A program made the translations under genes and the position numbers. Source: a virus. Taken from it: 64,000 nt of DNA. The notes beneath the pieces are model-generated. The model did no database searches. It saw only the letters and a list, made by a program, of their open reading frames with translations, and was not told where the DNA came from. Where the stretch lies: IMG/VR virus record IMGVR_UViG_3300047472_000155, positions 1-64,000 of that record; one strand, given 5' to 3'. Positions 12,456 to 39,211 of the stretch are shown here, in pieces (position 1 is the stretch's first letter; the number at the start of each line of letters is the position of its first letter).

Positions 12456-13433
12456 TTAGATTTCATACTTCTCTTTTTCTTCTGCTATCTTCTTGACATT
12501 GTCTTTGATATAGTGTTTAAGAGTTACGTCAATACCATTATGATTAAGCAGTTTAGATATTGTTTCTATCTCCATGCCAGCTTCCTTAAGTAAAGTTGCA
12601 CCAGTATGACGCAAATCATGCATATGTAAATCCATGTCGATTAGCTTACCAATTTTCTTAATCCAATTTTGCTGTAACGTTCTCTTATCTACCTTTTGCC
12701 ATGTCTTACCATAAAGTGCCAAGAATAAATATTCACTTTCGATATTATTTTTTTTACGATATTCAAGCCACTCTTTTATGAGAATTATAGTTCTACGAGA
12801 CATGAGTAAATCAACAATCTTTCCTTCTTTTTCAAGTACGTCATTAACTTCTCTATCTTTAAAATTAAGTTGAGAAACCTTGACATTACTTATTGCATTT
12901 ACTCTAGCCATTGTACTCAATCCAAATTCAAAAAGTAATTCCAATTGCATGTTGTAAAGATTTTTTTCAAGTTTTCCAAACAACTTTCTTAATCGTTCCA
13001 CATCTTCTAACGTTAAGAATGTTTGTTTAATTTGCACTTTTTCATCTTTACCAAGACTTGGACGCTCAAGGAAATCTATTGGATTCTGTTCAATCTTTCT
13101 TTTCTTTTTGAGTGCTAGATAGAAAGATGATATACTTGACATACGTCTTTGAATTCTTCTATCGTTGTTTCCAAGTTCCATTGAACAAAATAGCATATAC
13201 TCTTCAAGCATATCCGCCATATCTCCAGCATCAGTGCTCACAATATCAGCATTGTCGTAATACTCCATTATGTAAACTAACCATTGATTGAAATCGCTTT
13301 CATAACTCTTCTTTGTTGAATCTGAGAGTTTTCTATGTTTTGATATGAAAAATTTTCTTATATGCTCAACATTGGATGGATTTACTAAAGCAAGCTTTTC
13401 TTTTGTTGCATAAAATTTATAATTTCTTGCCAT
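12456..13433 (-). CDS. Tyrosine recombinase (XerC/D-like integrase) inside the tail module
   Basis: 325 residues. The N-terminal ~110 form a SAM-like core-binding domain (SDSTKKSYESDFNQWLVYI). The C-terminal catalytic domain has the full set: Arg in STMARVNAISNV, Lys in EKEGKIVDL, HDLRH in MHDLRHTGATLL, His in LLNHNGIDVT and the nucleophile Tyr in LKHYI. It should cut and rejoin DNA at a specific site, as an integrase, dimer resolvase or invertase. Its place between neck/tail genes and the tape measure, on the late strand, is unusual because phage integrases normally lie near the lysogeny genes. No attachment site is visible beside it. Confidence 0.9.
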   Translation of the reverse strand: MARNYKFYATKEKLALVNPSNVEHIRKFFISKHRKLSDSTKKSYESDFNQWLVYIMEYYDNADIVSTDAGDMADMLEEYMLFCSMELGNNDRRIQRRMSSISSFYLALKKKRKIEQNPIDFLERPSLGKDEKVQIKQTFLTLEDVERLRKLFGKLEKNLYNMQLELLFEFGLSTMARVNAISNVKVSQLNFKDREVNDVLEKEGKIVDLLMSRRTIILIKEWLEYRKKNNIESEYLFLALYGKTWQKVDKRTLQQNWIKKIGKLIDMDLHMHDLRHTGATLLKEAGMEIETISKLLNHNGIDVTLKHYIKDNVKKIAEEKEKYEI

Positions 13434-28611: not shown

Positions 28612-28726
28612 AGCGGAAACTAGGAATCGAACCTAGATCATGTTTGGTATCGTGTAAATGGGTGCTGCCGCTACCCACTATACCACGCCCCTGGAGGGGG
28701 ATGTCCTGCCATTAGACGATTTCCGC
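28612..28726 (-). tRNA. tRNA-Gly-like gene with a large insertion (chimera or degenerate)
   Basis: 115 nt. The ends match perfectly (GCGGAAA/TTTCCGC), with a normal D-arm (GTCTAATGGCAGGAC) and T-arm (GTTCGATTC). The anticodon region reads CATCCCC-CTCCA-GGGGCGTG, without a normal 7-base loop. About 45 extra bases with their own stems (GTGGGT/ACCCAT, GGTAT/ATACC) follow. It looks like a fusion of a Gly(TCC) 5' half with the remains of another tRNA. An intact Gly(TCC) gene exists at 34219-34290. Confidence 0.5.
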
Positions 28727-29489: not shown

Positions 29490-29496
29490 ATATGGT

Positions 29497-29601
29497 AGTA
29501 GGTTCAGGTCTCGACCCTGCTTCTCTTTGTCAACTTTTACACTCTCATCTAGAATTGAACATAGAGTATTGACAAGTGTTTTATCCGATAAACTAACCTA
29601 C
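29497..29601 (-). tRNA. tRNA-like gene with an extra hairpin in the anticodon arm
   Basis: 105 nt. The acceptor GTAGGTT/AACCTAC is perfect, with a D-arm (TTTATCGGATAAA) and T-arm (CAGGGTCGAGACCTG). The anticodon arm is an extended helix, CTTGTCAA/TTGACAAAG, carrying a second stem ACTCT/AGAGT with a 17-base loop. About 37 bases are extra relative to a normal tRNA. No anticodon can be assigned. It could be an intron-like insertion, a decayed gene or a tRNA mimic. Confidence 0.45.
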
Positions 29602-29797
29602 TATAACTTTTGGTTCCTCAACGGAGAACCACTCCGATCCTTTTTTTAAGATTTAGGATGAAACTTAAAACAAGCAACAATAGGTGTGACCTACTAAGAA
29701 TGAAGAAGTGACACGCAAAGCGTTTGTCTGCATCTTTTAATCATTCTCAAACTCATAGTTAGAAGCTTGATATTAATTTTATGTTATACTTGTTAAT

Positions 29798-29858
29798 AAA
29801 TGAGAGAGGGGAAAGGAAATCGTTTCCCTTCTGAGAGGAGGGAACCCCTCTCTCATTT
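29798..29858 (-). ncRNA. Candidate small RNA: 14-bp stem with two inner hairpins
   Basis: AAATGAGAGAGGGG (29798-29811) pairs perfectly with CCCCTCTCTCATTT (29845-29858). Inside are GGAAA-TCG-TTTCC (29815-29827) and an overlapping CCCTTCT/AGGAGGG hairpin, together a three-way junction. The promoter at 29915-29943 points at it. The flanking 29610-29797 holds no gene that can be supported. Confidence 0.5.
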
Positions 29859-29914
29859 CACCACCGGAATGTGATTATTGAAATAGTCATTGACTACTAT
29901 CTCAACTAAAATAA

Positions 29915-29943
29915 ATATTATCACATTTCTTTTCTATTGTAAA
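29915..29943 (-). promoter_or_regulatory. Promoter for the small RNA candidate
   Basis: TTTACA-17-TAATAT on the minus strand, 57 bases upstream of the 14-bp stem. Weaker hexamers than the other promoters of the cluster. Confidence 0.6.
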
Positions 29944-29960
29944 CACATTTTTTTAATTGG

Positions 29961-34218: not shown

Positions 34219-34290
34219 AGCGGATAACGAGACTCGAACTCGCAACCTTTTGGGTGGAAGCCAAACGCTCTACCATTGAGCTATATCCGC
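34219..34290 (-). tRNA. tRNA-Gly(TCC)
   Basis: Acceptor GCGGATA/TATCCGC, D-arm GCTCAATGGTAGAGC, anticodon stem TTTGG/CCAAA with loop CTTCCAC, T-loop TTCGAGT. Complete and regular, unlike the Gly-like gene at 28612. Confidence 0.92.
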
Positions 34291-34326
34291 ATATGAAAGC
34301 CCTAATTAAAGGGCTATTTGTATTTA

Positions 34327-34677
34327 TTATTCATTACCTTTTATTCCATAAGCTTTATGAATTGCAATATTTATTACTCTTTGTGCCTTCATAAGATAAT
34401 GATCTACTCTCGCACCTTCATTATCACCATACATAAGACGCATAAGTAAATACAACTCTGGATAACATGATCTCCAATTCCATTTCTCAATTTCTAGATA
34501 CCTATATTCATATCCAAAATATTCCTTAGCTAATTCAATTTCACTAGTAGTTAAAGTCATATTTTTTTTGATATGATCATAAGAATGATTTAATATTGTT
34601 TCAATTTCATTTTGATACGCCTTAAAACGCTTTTGATCTTCAATCATTAAACGTCCAATATCAAACAGTTCAATCAT
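34327..34677 (-). CDS. Unknown protein; 5' end unclear
   Basis: 116 residues from ATG 34677 (MIELFDIGRLMIEDQKRF ... YRYLEIEKWNWRSCYPELYLLMRLMYG). There is no good ribosome-binding site before this ATG. The same frame stays open about 130 bases further upstream with protein-like text (YVKNKRPLIRLKRKSE, YFKHYGDNEWEALGKIRK) but without ATG, GTG or TTG. A short ATG-led frame with a GAGATGAGG site begins one frame off near 34808. The gene may have lost its start to a frameshift or use a rare start codon. Confidence 0.5.
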   Translation of the reverse strand: MIELFDIGRLMIEDQKRFKAYQNEIETILNHSYDHIKKNMTLTTSEIELAKEYFGYEYRYLEIEKWNWRSCYPELYLLMRLMYGDNEGARVDHYLMKAQRVINIAIHKAYGIKGNE

Positions 34678-34833
34678 TATATCTTTTCTAATTTTTCCCA
34701 GCGCTTCCCACTCATTGTCTCCGTAATGCTTAAAATAGCTTACCTCTACACTCTCACTCTTCCTCTTTAATCTGATTAAAGGACGTTTATTTTTTACGTA
34801 GATAACATCCTCATCTCACTAAAAACTACGTAT

Positions 34834-34905
34834 TGCTGCGCCTTAGAATCGAACTAAGTTAACAAGGCTTATGAGACCTCACCGGATATCCAACCCGCCG
34901 CCAGC
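34834..34905 (-). tRNA. tRNA-Met(CAT)
   Basis: Anticodon arm GAGGT-CTCATAA-GCCTT, T-arm CTTAGTTCGATTCTAAG. The acceptor pairs only in its outer four positions (GCTG/CAGC). CAT could be elongator Met, initiator or Ile2. Confidence 0.7.
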
Positions 34906-34913
34906 TATAAGTA

Positions 34914-34985
34914 TAGGGATAAGGAGAATCGAACTCCTGTCTAGTCCTTATCAGAGACTAATAATAACCACTATAAGATATCCCA
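34914..34985 (-). tRNA. tRNA-Ile(GAT)
   Basis: Anticodon stem AGTCT/GGACT with loop CTGATAA, T-arm AGGAGTTCGATTCTCCT, acceptor TGGGATA/TATCCCT with an unpaired first position. Confidence 0.82.
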
Positions 34986-34990
34986 TCATT

Positions 34991-35078
34991 TGGTGGCAAG
35001 GGATGGAATTTAACCACCTAAGATTGTAAATCACTCCCGTTACATGGGAGCGCGACTCATCATCTTCGCCGCCTTGCC
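34991..35078 (-). tRNA. tRNA-Tyr-like (GTA), class II, with encoded CCA
   Basis: Acceptor GGCAAGG/CCTTGCC, anticodon stem CTCCC/GGGAG with loop ATGTAAC, long variable arm GATT-TAC-AATC, followed by ACCA in the DNA. The T-loop is TTAAATT, lacking the normal C56. It is the only tRNA here seen with a genomic CCA. Confidence 0.7.
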
Positions 35079-35087
35079 ATATTATAA

Positions 35088-35327
35088 TTAACTTTCTATT
35101 ACTTTCCAATCTTCAAGTTTAAGGTCTTCATCAATCAACAGAAACATTGGCATGTCGTTATTAGTAAACTCAACGATTATCAATTTTCCTTTTTCATATT
35201 CTGGACATTTGTTAGGATCATTGTACGTTTCCTCTGCAAGACATACACGATACTTACCACCATAACTTAGCGAATCACCAATATACTCGATTCTCATTCC
35301 TTCTTTTACATTAGAAACGTTCAACAT
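35088..35327 (-). CDS. Small acidic protein, unknown
   Basis: 79 residues (MRIEYIGDSLSYGGKYRVCLAEE, GKLIIVEFTNNDMPMFLLIDEDLKLEDWKVIE), beta-rich, likely a small barrel. AGGAGAGAT site. Third gene of a three-gene block (35850 to 35088) flanked by tRNAs. Confidence 0.65.
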   Translation of the reverse strand: MLNVSNVKEGMRIEYIGDSLSYGGKYRVCLAEETYNDPNKCPEYEKGKLIIVEFTNNDMPMFLLIDEDLKLEDWKVIES

Positions 35328-36091: not shown

Positions 36092-36661
36092 TTATCTTAC
36101 ATTTGCATAACTTATAAAGTTTCTAATTTTTGAAATTGTAGTAGTACCAACACCATACTCTTTTGCCAAAGATATTCCTGTTTTCATTGAATTTCTGATG
36201 TATCTAATATCTTCTTCTGAGAACATTTTATTATGATCAGCGTCACTTTTTCTTTCTAATGATTGATAATCTATATCAGACAATATATGTTTCCATTTTT
36301 TGCCACTCCAAATATTCTTTATAGTACCTCTATCTACTCCAAATATTTTTGAAAGCTCTGTTGGAGAATTTGTAGTATTCATTCTTATACTTATTACACT
36401 TTCTTCGTCAAGCTTCGATCTTCCATTATTTATACCAATTGCACTTCTTCCTCTAGAAACTCTATCCATAACATTGTCTTGATGTGTACCAGTTTCTAGA
36501 TGATTTGGATTAATGCAGAATGAATTGTCGCACTTGTGACGAATTACAAGACCATCTTCTATCTTGTTGCCACTAAATAATTCATATATATACCTATGCA
36601 TTATTAATTGGACACCATTTCTCTCTACTTTGTAACCATGTCTCTTTTTTGCATGAGACAC
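36092..36661 (-). CDS. HNH homing endonuclease
   Basis: About 189 residues from GTG 36661. HRYIYELFSGN then VIRHKCDNSFCINPNHLETGTHQDNVMD is the HNH core (His, Asn, His plus zinc cysteines) of free-standing homing endonucleases. The C-terminal part has two helix-turn-helix-like segments (LSKIFGVDRGTIKNIWSGKKW, LAKEYGVGTTTISKIRN) for DNA binding. Upstream in the same frame, protein-like text with a further cysteine pair (IEYEVENECWVC) has no start codon before a stop. The real 5' end may therefore be frameshifted (see findings). It sits between tRNA-Leu genes, a usual target. Confidence 0.8.
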   Translation of the reverse strand: MSHAKKRHGYKVERNGVQLIMHRYIYELFSGNKIEDGLVIRHKCDNSFCINPNHLETGTHQDNVMDRVSRGRSAIGINNGRSKLDEESVISIRMNTTNSPTELSKIFGVDRGTIKNIWSGKKWKHILSDIDYQSLERKSDADHNKMFSEEDIRYIRNSMKTGISLAKEYGVGTTTISKIRNFISYANVR

Positions 36662-36988: not shown

Positions 36989-37044
36989 TTAATAAAAAGT
37001 GTACGTTACTTTTCGATTTGTTGTTTACGTACAAACAGTCCCAA

Positions 37045-37115
37045 TAGCGTGTACGGGGATCGAACCCGTGATACCGTATAGAAAGTACGGAGTCTTACCA
37101 CTTGACCAACACGCC
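37045..37115 (-). tRNA. tRNA-Glu(TTC)
   Basis: Acceptor GGCGTGT/ACACGCT, D-arm GTCAAGTGGTAAGAC, anticodon stem CCGTA/TACGG with loop CTTTCTA, T-arm ACGGGTTCGATCCCCGT. Confidence 0.9.
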
Positions 37116-37126
37116 ATATTGAATAG

Positions 37127-37417
37127 GTTTTTTCTTCGAAAGGGAAAACCATCTAACCCTTGCACAGCGCTATGCGTTTATGGAAAACTCGAAACCTTTG
37201 CATCTTATGGTAATGCAATAACCCCTCTACACATGTGGAATTGTAGTCAACCTCTGCGATCTTGGGAAGTGCAGTCACACCACTACTCTTATGGCAATAG
37301 TAGCAAACCCTACATATATGGAATGTAGCGAACCTCTAGTCTTGTGGCTGAGAACTAGTAGACCTCTTACTTTCTGGATAGTAAAGTAAACCTTGCATTT
37401 TTATGGATCTGCATAAA
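37127..37417 (-). repeat. Array of about eight covarying hairpins, period ~28 bp
   Basis: Between tRNA-Glu and tRNA-Thr lie units in which a 4-6 bp stem encloses a loop centred on TGG (plus strand) or CCA (minus strand). A minus-strand linker near AGGTT joins them. Left arms begin at 37198, 37227, 37254, 37283, 37310, 37336, 37367 and 37394. Stems differ (TTGCAT/ATGCAA, CTACA/TGTAG, CTGCG/TGCAG, CTACT/AGTAG, CTACAT/ATGTAG, CTAGT/ACTAG, TTACT/AGTAA, TGCA/TGCA) yet stay paired. Two looser hairpins precede them (37127-37149, 37176-37188). Confidence 0.7.
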
Positions 37418-37421
37418 CCAA

Positions 37422-37492
37422 AGCCCTGTGACAGAATTGAACTATCGTTTGCGGGTTACAAAACCGCCGTTCTACCATTAAACTAAAAGGGC
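37422..37492 (-). tRNA. tRNA-Thr(TGT)
   Basis: Acceptor GCCCTTT/ACAGGGC (one mismatch), D-arm GTTTAATGGTAGAAC, anticodon arm GCGGT-TTTGTAA-CCCGC, T-arm GATAGTTCAATTCTGTC. Confidence 0.78.
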
Positions 37493-37808: not shown

Positions 37809-37854
37809 CTCTTTTAAATTGTAGTTAAATAATATAATATTTCCAACATGTCAG

Positions 37855-37908
37855 CCACGTACAAACCATCAAGGGCAATTTACAACTCCCTATTAAACTA
37901 AACCGTGG
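37855..37908 (-). other. Truncated tRNA-like fold
   Basis: 54 nt: CCACG/CGTGG ends, a D-arm-like AGTTTAATAGG and an anticodon-arm-like GGGAG-TTGTAAA-TTGCC. The T-arm is mostly missing. It may be a decayed tRNA (Tyr-like anticodon GTA) or a chance fold. Confidence 0.35.
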
Positions 37909-37923
37909 ATTTTATCGAATTGG

Positions 37924-38133
37924 CTAGTTAGGACTTATCTTGCCTAACTTCTTAGCCATGAAAATTGCACCTTCACCTTTGACTCTGCGTCTCTGGCAGA
38001 ATAAGAGTCTTGAGTCGTGACAATTGAATGCTTTGAGCGTTGAGTCTTGAACTTTATATCCAATTTGTATAATTTGATATATCGTATCAAATAATCTTAT
38101 ATTTGCTCCTATAGCAAGGAATTGTATTAACAA
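37924..38133 (-). CDS. Possible small protein, doubtful
   Basis: 69 residues with a basic C-terminal half (CQRRRVKGEGAIFMAKKLGKI). There is no clear ribosome-binding site. The last codons coincide with a strong hairpin (GGCTAAGAAGTTAGG paired with CCTAACTAGCC). The stretch could equally be an untranslated RNA ending in that hairpin. Confidence 0.35.
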   Translation of the reverse strand: MLIQFLAIGANIRLFDTIYQIIQIGYKVQDSTLKAFNCHDSRLLFCQRRRVKGEGAIFMAKKLGKISPN

Positions 38134-38246
38134 TGTTAACCCACATTGTAAGAAAGGTGTAAGAGTTCAATGGTTTTCGACATATTGGAAATAGGTAGTT
38201 TTATTTATTTAAGGTGCATGATCTACCAAACAAACACATCATCATA

Positions 38247-39038: not shown

Positions 39039-39067
39039 AGTATATCATTTTATCTTTCATTTGTCAA
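39039..39067 (-). promoter_or_regulatory. Conserved-spacer promoter
   Basis: TTGACA-17-TATACT with spacer AATGAAAGATAAAATGA on the minus strand. Confidence 0.87.
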
Positions 39068-39182: not shown

Positions 39183-39211
39183 ATTATACCATTTTATCTT
39201 GTATTTGTCAA
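39183..39211 (-). promoter_or_regulatory. Conserved-spacer promoter for tRNA-Trp
   Basis: TTGACA-17-TATAAT with spacer AATACAAGATAAAATGG on the minus strand, 15 bases before tRNA-Trp. Confidence 0.88.

What the first reader, a model, noticed from the sequence alone, without database searches (positions are those of the whole stretch)
37127..37417. Periodic array of eight covarying hairpins inside the tRNA cluster
Eight stems start every 26-31 bases. Stem sequences change from unit to unit but remain paired, while the loop core (CCA on the tRNA strand, TGG on the other) and the AGGTT-like linker are kept. It is not a CRISPR, since the invariant part is loop and linker, not a repeat with unrelated spacers. 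On the plus strand most loops carry GGA in a hairpin, the CsrA-binding configuration, so a CsrB-like sponge is possible. On the minus strand it would be part of the tRNA transcript and could bind a tRNA-processing or CCA-recognising factor.
Basis: partly seen in the sequence, partly recalled or inferred. Interest (0 to 1): 0.8.

Follow-up and report, generated by a model that had tools for sequence, protein, structure and literature searches.

The report
Rapidly changing hairpin array between tRNAs
A phage carries, between two tRNA genes, about 300 bases of nine evenly spaced RNA units whose stems change but stay paired; a sister phage shows this is real structure, most likely a non-coding RNA of unknown partner released with the tRNAs, and not the CsrA sponge first proposed.

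Summary
On the tRNA (minus) strand between tRNA-Thr and tRNA-Glu lie nine CCA-anchored units 26-30 nt apart: eight regular hairpins, a ninth in a conserved 3' domain, then a longer hairpin. Shuffles never chain more than three such units. Arms pair within their own unit far better than with other units. In the only relative found with the array (91% identical terminase), the 3' third is 87% identical. One orthologous unit there has two compensatory pair changes, and a covariance model built from window units finds another (E 3e-5). The two phages differ in unit number and regularity, so the array evolves fast. No further copy was found in viral contigs, sequenced phages, Rfam or 20 other related records.

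Strong promoters lie upstream on the tRNA strand and none of quality near the array on the other. The CsrA-sponge reading is not supported, because GGA is not conserved. The hairpins are weak, and total folding energy is no better than shuffled.

Most likely this is a clade-specific non-coding RNA of the phage tRNA operon that binds a partner at many sites; that function is inferred. A conserved ~360-nt structured RNA lies about 420 bases away, and related phages carry permuted-tRNA elements in their tRNA clusters.

The parts
37394..37413 (-). unit 1 hairpin, TGCA/TGCA, loop GATCCATAAAAA
   Evidence: found by the model although not used to build it
37366..37390 (-). unit 2 hairpin, TTTACTTT/AAAGTAAG, loop ACTATCCAG
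37336..37358 (-). unit 3 hairpin, CTAGTT/GACTAG, loop with GCCA
37310..37328 (-). unit 4 hairpin, CTACAT/ATGTAG, loop TCCATAT
37283..37303 (-). unit 5 hairpin, CTACT/AGTAG, loop ATTGCCATAAG
37254..37274 (-). unit 6 hairpin, CTGC/GCAG, loop ACTTCCCAAGATC
37227..37246 (-). unit 7 hairpin, CTACA/TGTAG, loop ATTCCACATG
37198..37218 (-). unit 8 hairpin, TTGCATT/GATGCAA, loop ACCATAA; in the relative CTACAT/ATGTAG
   Evidence: comparison with L095
37149..37183 (-). conserved 3' domain with the ninth CCA: CCAT [GCATA-GCGC-TGTGC] ATGG (relative: CCAA/TTGG)
   Evidence: 87% identical over 98 bases in L095
37126..37150 (-). hairpin GGTTTT..AAAACC next to tRNA-Glu
37422..37492 (-). tRNA-Thr (TGT), upstream neighbour
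37044..37116 (-). tRNA-Glu (TTC), downstream neighbour
39183..39211 (-). sigma-A type promoter, 12 of 12 with TG before the -10, ahead of tRNA-Trp
   Evidence: consensus match only
39039..39067 (-). sigma-A type promoter, 11 of 12, ahead of the 216-aa gene and the His-Thr-array-Glu stretch
   Evidence: consensus match only

Best explanation
The array is a non-coding RNA module of the phage tRNA operon, read on the minus strand with the tRNAs. The processing that matures the 3' end of tRNA-Thr and the 5' end of tRNA-Glu would free it as an RNA of about 300 nt. Each unit offers a partner the same single-stranded signals, GG(U) in the linker and NCC(A) in the loop, held in place by a short stem whose sequence may drift as long as it pairs. 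Units are gained and lost quickly. The working model is a multivalent binder (sponge or scaffold) for a protein or RNA that reads GG and CC, or a string of small GG/CC docked modules. Shown: the array, the unit-specific pairing, its survival in one relative, the operon context, the fast turnover. Inferred: transcription, release, binding, partner.
For: Chain of 9 units against at most 3 in shuffles, and unit-specific arms; covariation among units; same place in the sister phage with two compensatory changes in the orthologous unit and an extra hairpin tolerated in the 5' half of its loop while CCATAAG is kept; model of window units finds the relative's first unit, E 3e-5, and unit 1 of the window; promoters and genes all on the tRNA strand.
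Against: No expression data. Hairpins are weak and total folding is no better than shuffled. Only two genomes carry the array, and the relative's version is short and irregular. A phage with 71% terminase identity has tRNA-His and tRNA-Thr without it, so it is dispensable. No partner protein is in sight.
Confidence: 0.5

Rival explanations
1. Structured spacer without function: tandem duplicates between two tRNA genes whose arms are kept complementary by the mutation process itself (template switching between the arms of quasi-palindromes).
For: Weak hairpins, no energy signal, fast turnover, absence in L012.
Against: Template switching would not keep CC in the loop and GG in the linker while the stems change; the 3' domain is well conserved.
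Confidence: 0.25
2. Decoy of tRNA: the loops mimic tRNA anticodon arms (NCC) or 3' ends (NCCA) and titrate a nuclease, a T-box leader or a tRNA-maturation enzyme.
For: Position in the tRNA operon; NCC(A) in every loop.
Against: No sequence similarity to any fetched tRNA; loops are 7-13 nt with the core off-centre, unlike a 7-nt anticodon loop; the N is variable; NCCA is not at a 3' end.
Confidence: 0.1
3. DNA element: hairpins of single-stranded DNA read by a recombinase or replication protein.
For: Arm complementarity alone does not tell DNA from RNA; a tyrosine recombinase is encoded in the window (12456-13433).
Against: Lies inside a tRNA operon; arms of a recombinase site would keep their sequence; no skew switch at the array.
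Confidence: 0.08
4. Plus-strand CsrA (CsrB-like) sponge.
For: GGA in 6 of 9 plus-strand loops.
Against: ANGGA in 3 of 9; GGA not conserved in the relative's V8 and V9; linkers lack GGA; no good promoter on that strand; antisense to the tRNA operon.
Confidence: 0.03
5. Antitoxin RNA of a type III toxin-antitoxin system.
For: Tandem short RNA units.
Against: No direct repeats; neighbours are tRNAs, not a toxin gene; ToxN family not found in the record (where the control was silent).
Confidence: 0.02

Closest known systems
Non-coding RNAs of phage tRNA islands: GOLLD and ROOL (PMC12286853); T4 RNA C and D (from memory)
   Same: Phage-encoded, structured, non-tRNA RNA in or next to a tRNA cluster, function unknown; like GOLLD, a conserved 3' part and a less conserved 5' part.
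   Different: About 300 nt made of short repeated hairpin units; no match to GOLLD (control silent) or to any other Rfam family.
CsrB / RsmZ sponge RNAs
   Same: Many hairpins with a kept single-stranded motif and free stems; the working model acts like them.
   Different: Kept motif is CC in the loop and GG in the linker on the transcribed strand, not GGA; opposite strand; inside a tRNA operon.
CRISPR array
   Same: Regular spacing of about 28 nt.
   Different: No direct repeats and no spacers.
Type III antitoxin RNA (ToxI, CptI, TenpI)
   Same: Tandem units that each fold.
   Different: Units not near-identical in sequence; no toxin gene beside them.

Membership tests
CsrB/RsmZ sponge RNA | (A)NGGA kept in most hairpin loops of the transcribed strand | tested here: not met
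   On the plus strand ANGGA in 3 of 9 and GGA in 6 of 9 loops; on the minus strand loops carry NCC (sequence)
CsrB/RsmZ sponge RNA | transcribed from that strand | tested here: inconclusive
   No good plus-strand promoter near; no expression data
CsrB/RsmZ sponge RNA | binds CsrA | not testable with these tools
   No binding data; no csrA in the phage record
CRISPR array | near-identical direct repeats separated by unrelated spacers | tested here: not met
   No repeat family in the array
Type III toxin-antitoxin RNA | near-identical tandem repeats | tested here: not met
Type III toxin-antitoxin RNA | adjacent ToxN-like toxin gene | tested here: not met
   Neighbours are tRNAs; PF13958 absent from the record, but the control genomes were silent too
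GOLLD | match to RF02032 | tested here: inconclusive
   No match in three records, but the control genomes were silent; none in the Rfam scans
Non-coding RNA of a phage tRNA cluster | lies between tRNAs on their strand | tested here: met
Non-coding RNA of a phage tRNA cluster | structure supported by compensatory changes | tested here: met
   (two genomes only)
Non-coding RNA of a phage tRNA cluster | stable RNA present in infected cells | not testable with these tools
   No expression data for this uncultured phage

The most novel reading that the evidence does not exclude
A new class of multivalent phage RNA cut out of a tRNA operon: a string of small modules, each a stem whose loop CC docks with the linker GG or is read by one protein, whose copy number and stem sequences turn over quickly while the docking signals stay fixed, used to titrate a host or phage RNA-binding factor.
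Probability: 0.15. Interest if true: 0.75.

Novelty: new variant of a known kind. Interest (0 to 1): 0.45.

Why it matters
It adds a simple, modular, fast-evolving RNA to the few non-tRNA RNAs known from phage tRNA islands. A synthetic array and its loop mutants could be used directly as bait for the partner. The surroundings (a conserved ~360-nt RNA next to it, and permuted-tRNA elements in related phages) suggest that phage tRNA clusters hold more undescribed structured RNA than annotation shows.

Tried and rejected
CRISPR (no direct repeats). Type III antitoxin. CsrA sponge (motif count). Rfam at lax thresholds in the array and in the relative (only tRNAs and chance hits). GOLLD model. Ro60/TROVE gene as a hint to Y RNA (none in 12 records). 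tRNA remnants (no similarity). Loop-linker pseudoknot longer than GG/CC: the bases flanking GG and CC do not covary by eye, so at most 2 bp. Coding repeats: spacings are not multiples of 3. Scans for further copies: viral contigs by pattern (the known relative and a chance hit in an unrelated gene; two hits) and genomes by pattern (41 single matches); none of these loci holds an array. Distant blastn in phages: none. Model R1 in 22 related records: only the window and the sister convincing. More loci through the neighbouring 216-aa gene: no array. A single-protein PhoH query found nothing.

Full report
Setting. The window is part of a 166,838-bp virus record, a large siphovirus of Bacillota by its relatives: its terminase is 53% identical to Brevibacillus phage Sundance and about 46% to the Bacillus phages FADO, PJN02 and vB_BcoS-136. 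Nearly all genes from 1 to 44.5 kb and all 22 ARAGORN tRNAs are on the minus strand, and the GC skew switches near 44.7 kb. The array fills the 305 bases between tRNA-Thr (37422-37492) and tRNA-Glu (37044-37116).

The array. On the minus strand nine CCA cores stand 26-30 bases apart. Units 1-8 are hairpins with stems of 4-8 bp; in six of them the stem ends exactly 12 nt after the start of CCA. The loop consensus is NCCA-N-AA(G) and the linker consensus is (A)(G/A)GGTT(T/C/G)(A/G). The ninth CCA belongs to a 3' domain, CCAT [GCATA-GCGC-TGTGC] ATGG, followed by a hairpin next to tRNA-Glu.

Chance. The chain of nine compares with at most three in 2,000 dinucleotide shuffles of the region, and with no CCA-anchored run longer than four elsewhere in 3.6 Mb of fetched sequence. 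Dealing the 3' arms of units 1-8 to other units lowers the pairing score from 45.5 to a mean of 32.4; 7 of 20,000 permutations reach the observed value. On an alignment of six units every core pair is standard, three of four vary on both sides, and sliding the partner by one to three columns destroys the pairing. The hairpins are weak, however, and the region folds no better than its shuffles, so the signal lies in the pattern and not in the energy.

Relatives. Among the loci fetched with terminase and PhoH alignments the only one with the array is IMGVR_UViG_3300042923_000502 (terminase 91%). Between its tRNA-Thr and tRNA-Glu it has a shorter, irregular version. Ninety-eight bases at the 3' end are 87% identical. 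In the unit next to them TTGCAT/ATGCAA has become CTACAT/ATGTAG, two compensatory changes; a further hairpin AACCGC..GCGGTT is inserted in the 5' half of its loop while CCATAAG is kept. In the 3' domain CCAT/ATGG becomes CCAA/TTGG. The covariance model built from window units 3-8 finds the relative's first unit (AGGTTGACCACATCCCGAAAAAGTGG, 20.2 bits, E 3e-5 in the region) and window unit 1, which was not in the model. The other hairpins I see by eye in the relative (CTATC/GATAG, CGCTT/AAGTG, TACTA/TAGTA) were not tested one by one. A phage with 71% terminase identity has tRNA-His and tRNA-Thr but no array. The model finds nothing convincing in 20 other related records, and distant blastn finds nothing in 50,697 phage records.

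Strand and CsrA. Consensus promoters lie upstream on the tRNA strand (39211-39183, 12 of 12; 39067-39039, 11 of 12) and none of quality near the array on the other strand. GGA is present in 6 of 9 plus-strand loops and ANGGA in 3 of 9; what is conserved is only GG, and plus-strand linkers carry AACC. The CsrA-sponge reading is not supported.

Mechanism. Fixed single-stranded GG and CC with drifting but paired stems, in many copies with quick turnover, is what one expects of a multivalent binding RNA. Release by tRNA processing follows from the position between two tRNAs and from general knowledge of RNase P and 3' maturation; it is not shown here. Whether GG and CC meet each other (a 2-bp docking) or are read by a protein cannot be told. 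A functionless spacer kept palindromic by template switching remains the main rival.

Comparison with the known. It works most like a sponge RNA of the CsrB kind but fails that family's defining motif test. By position it belongs with the structured non-tRNA RNAs of phage tRNA islands such as GOLLD and ROOL (PMC12286853), which are larger and unrelated in sequence. No Rfam family matches.

Surroundings. Two further things met on the way are listed under 'noticed': a conserved structured RNA at 37838-38193, and permuted-tRNA elements in the tRNA clusters of related phages. Both may deserve more attention than the array.

Noticed in passing
window 37838-38193, minus strand; L095:12593-13021; L012:1070-1520; by eye also L221:6640-7030 and L223:6645-6960: A conserved ~360-nt structured RNA about 420 bases from the array, downstream of the 216-aa gene. 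81% identical in the sister phage, fold z -2.75, 25 pairs with double-sided changes among three genomes, long terminal stem TATTTCCAATATGTC/GACATGTTGGAAATA, last stem CCACG/CGTGG -> CCATG/CATGG -> CCCTT/AAGGG. No Rfam family over its cut-off (Fusobacteriales-1 at 28 bits, cut-off 52). The same gene is followed by similar RNA-like sequence in two more distant contigs.
   Followed up: partly
L006:8300-11300 (Bacillus phage vB_BcoS-136), L003, L004, L029, L036, L158, L249, L250, L255-L259, L265 and others: Elements AG[AG]C[AG]C-NN-ACAGC[AT]A ... G[TC]G[TC]CT(T/A)G in phage tRNA clusters. Of 76 motif matches, 68 are closed by a complementary stem that covaries (GACAC/GTGTC, GGCAC/GTGCC, GGCGC/GCGCC, GACGC/GCGTC), and 22 enclose a circularly permuted tRNA: T-arm and 3' acceptor strand first, then 5' acceptor strand and D-arm (some contigs are represented by two loci). 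They resemble bacterial Y RNA (a tRNA mimic) or permuted tRNA genes, but 12 related records have no Ro60 gene and Rfam YrlA does not match the elements. No paper on permuted tRNA in phages was found in two searches. Absent from the window.
   Followed up: partly
window 29491-29957, minus strand: A tRNA-like gene missed by ARAGORN, acceptor GTAGGTT/AACCTAC, with a long insertion in or near its anticodon arm (TTGTCAA..TTGACAA), seen by eye in the gap sequence.
   Followed up: no
window 34219-34985 and 34986-35110, minus strand: Further tRNA-like sequences not called by ARAGORN, one with a Met-like CAT anticodon loop (by eye).
   Followed up: no
window 28612-28726, minus strand: A tRNA found by Rfam (39.5 bits) and missed by ARAGORN; 115 nt long, so with an insertion.
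   Followed up: no
window 36092-36661, minus strand: HNH endonuclease gene inside the tRNA cluster, probably a homing endonuclease.
   Followed up: no
L221:11016-11085: Skipping-rope RNA (RF02924, 47 bits, above the cut-off) in a related viral contig.
   Followed up: no
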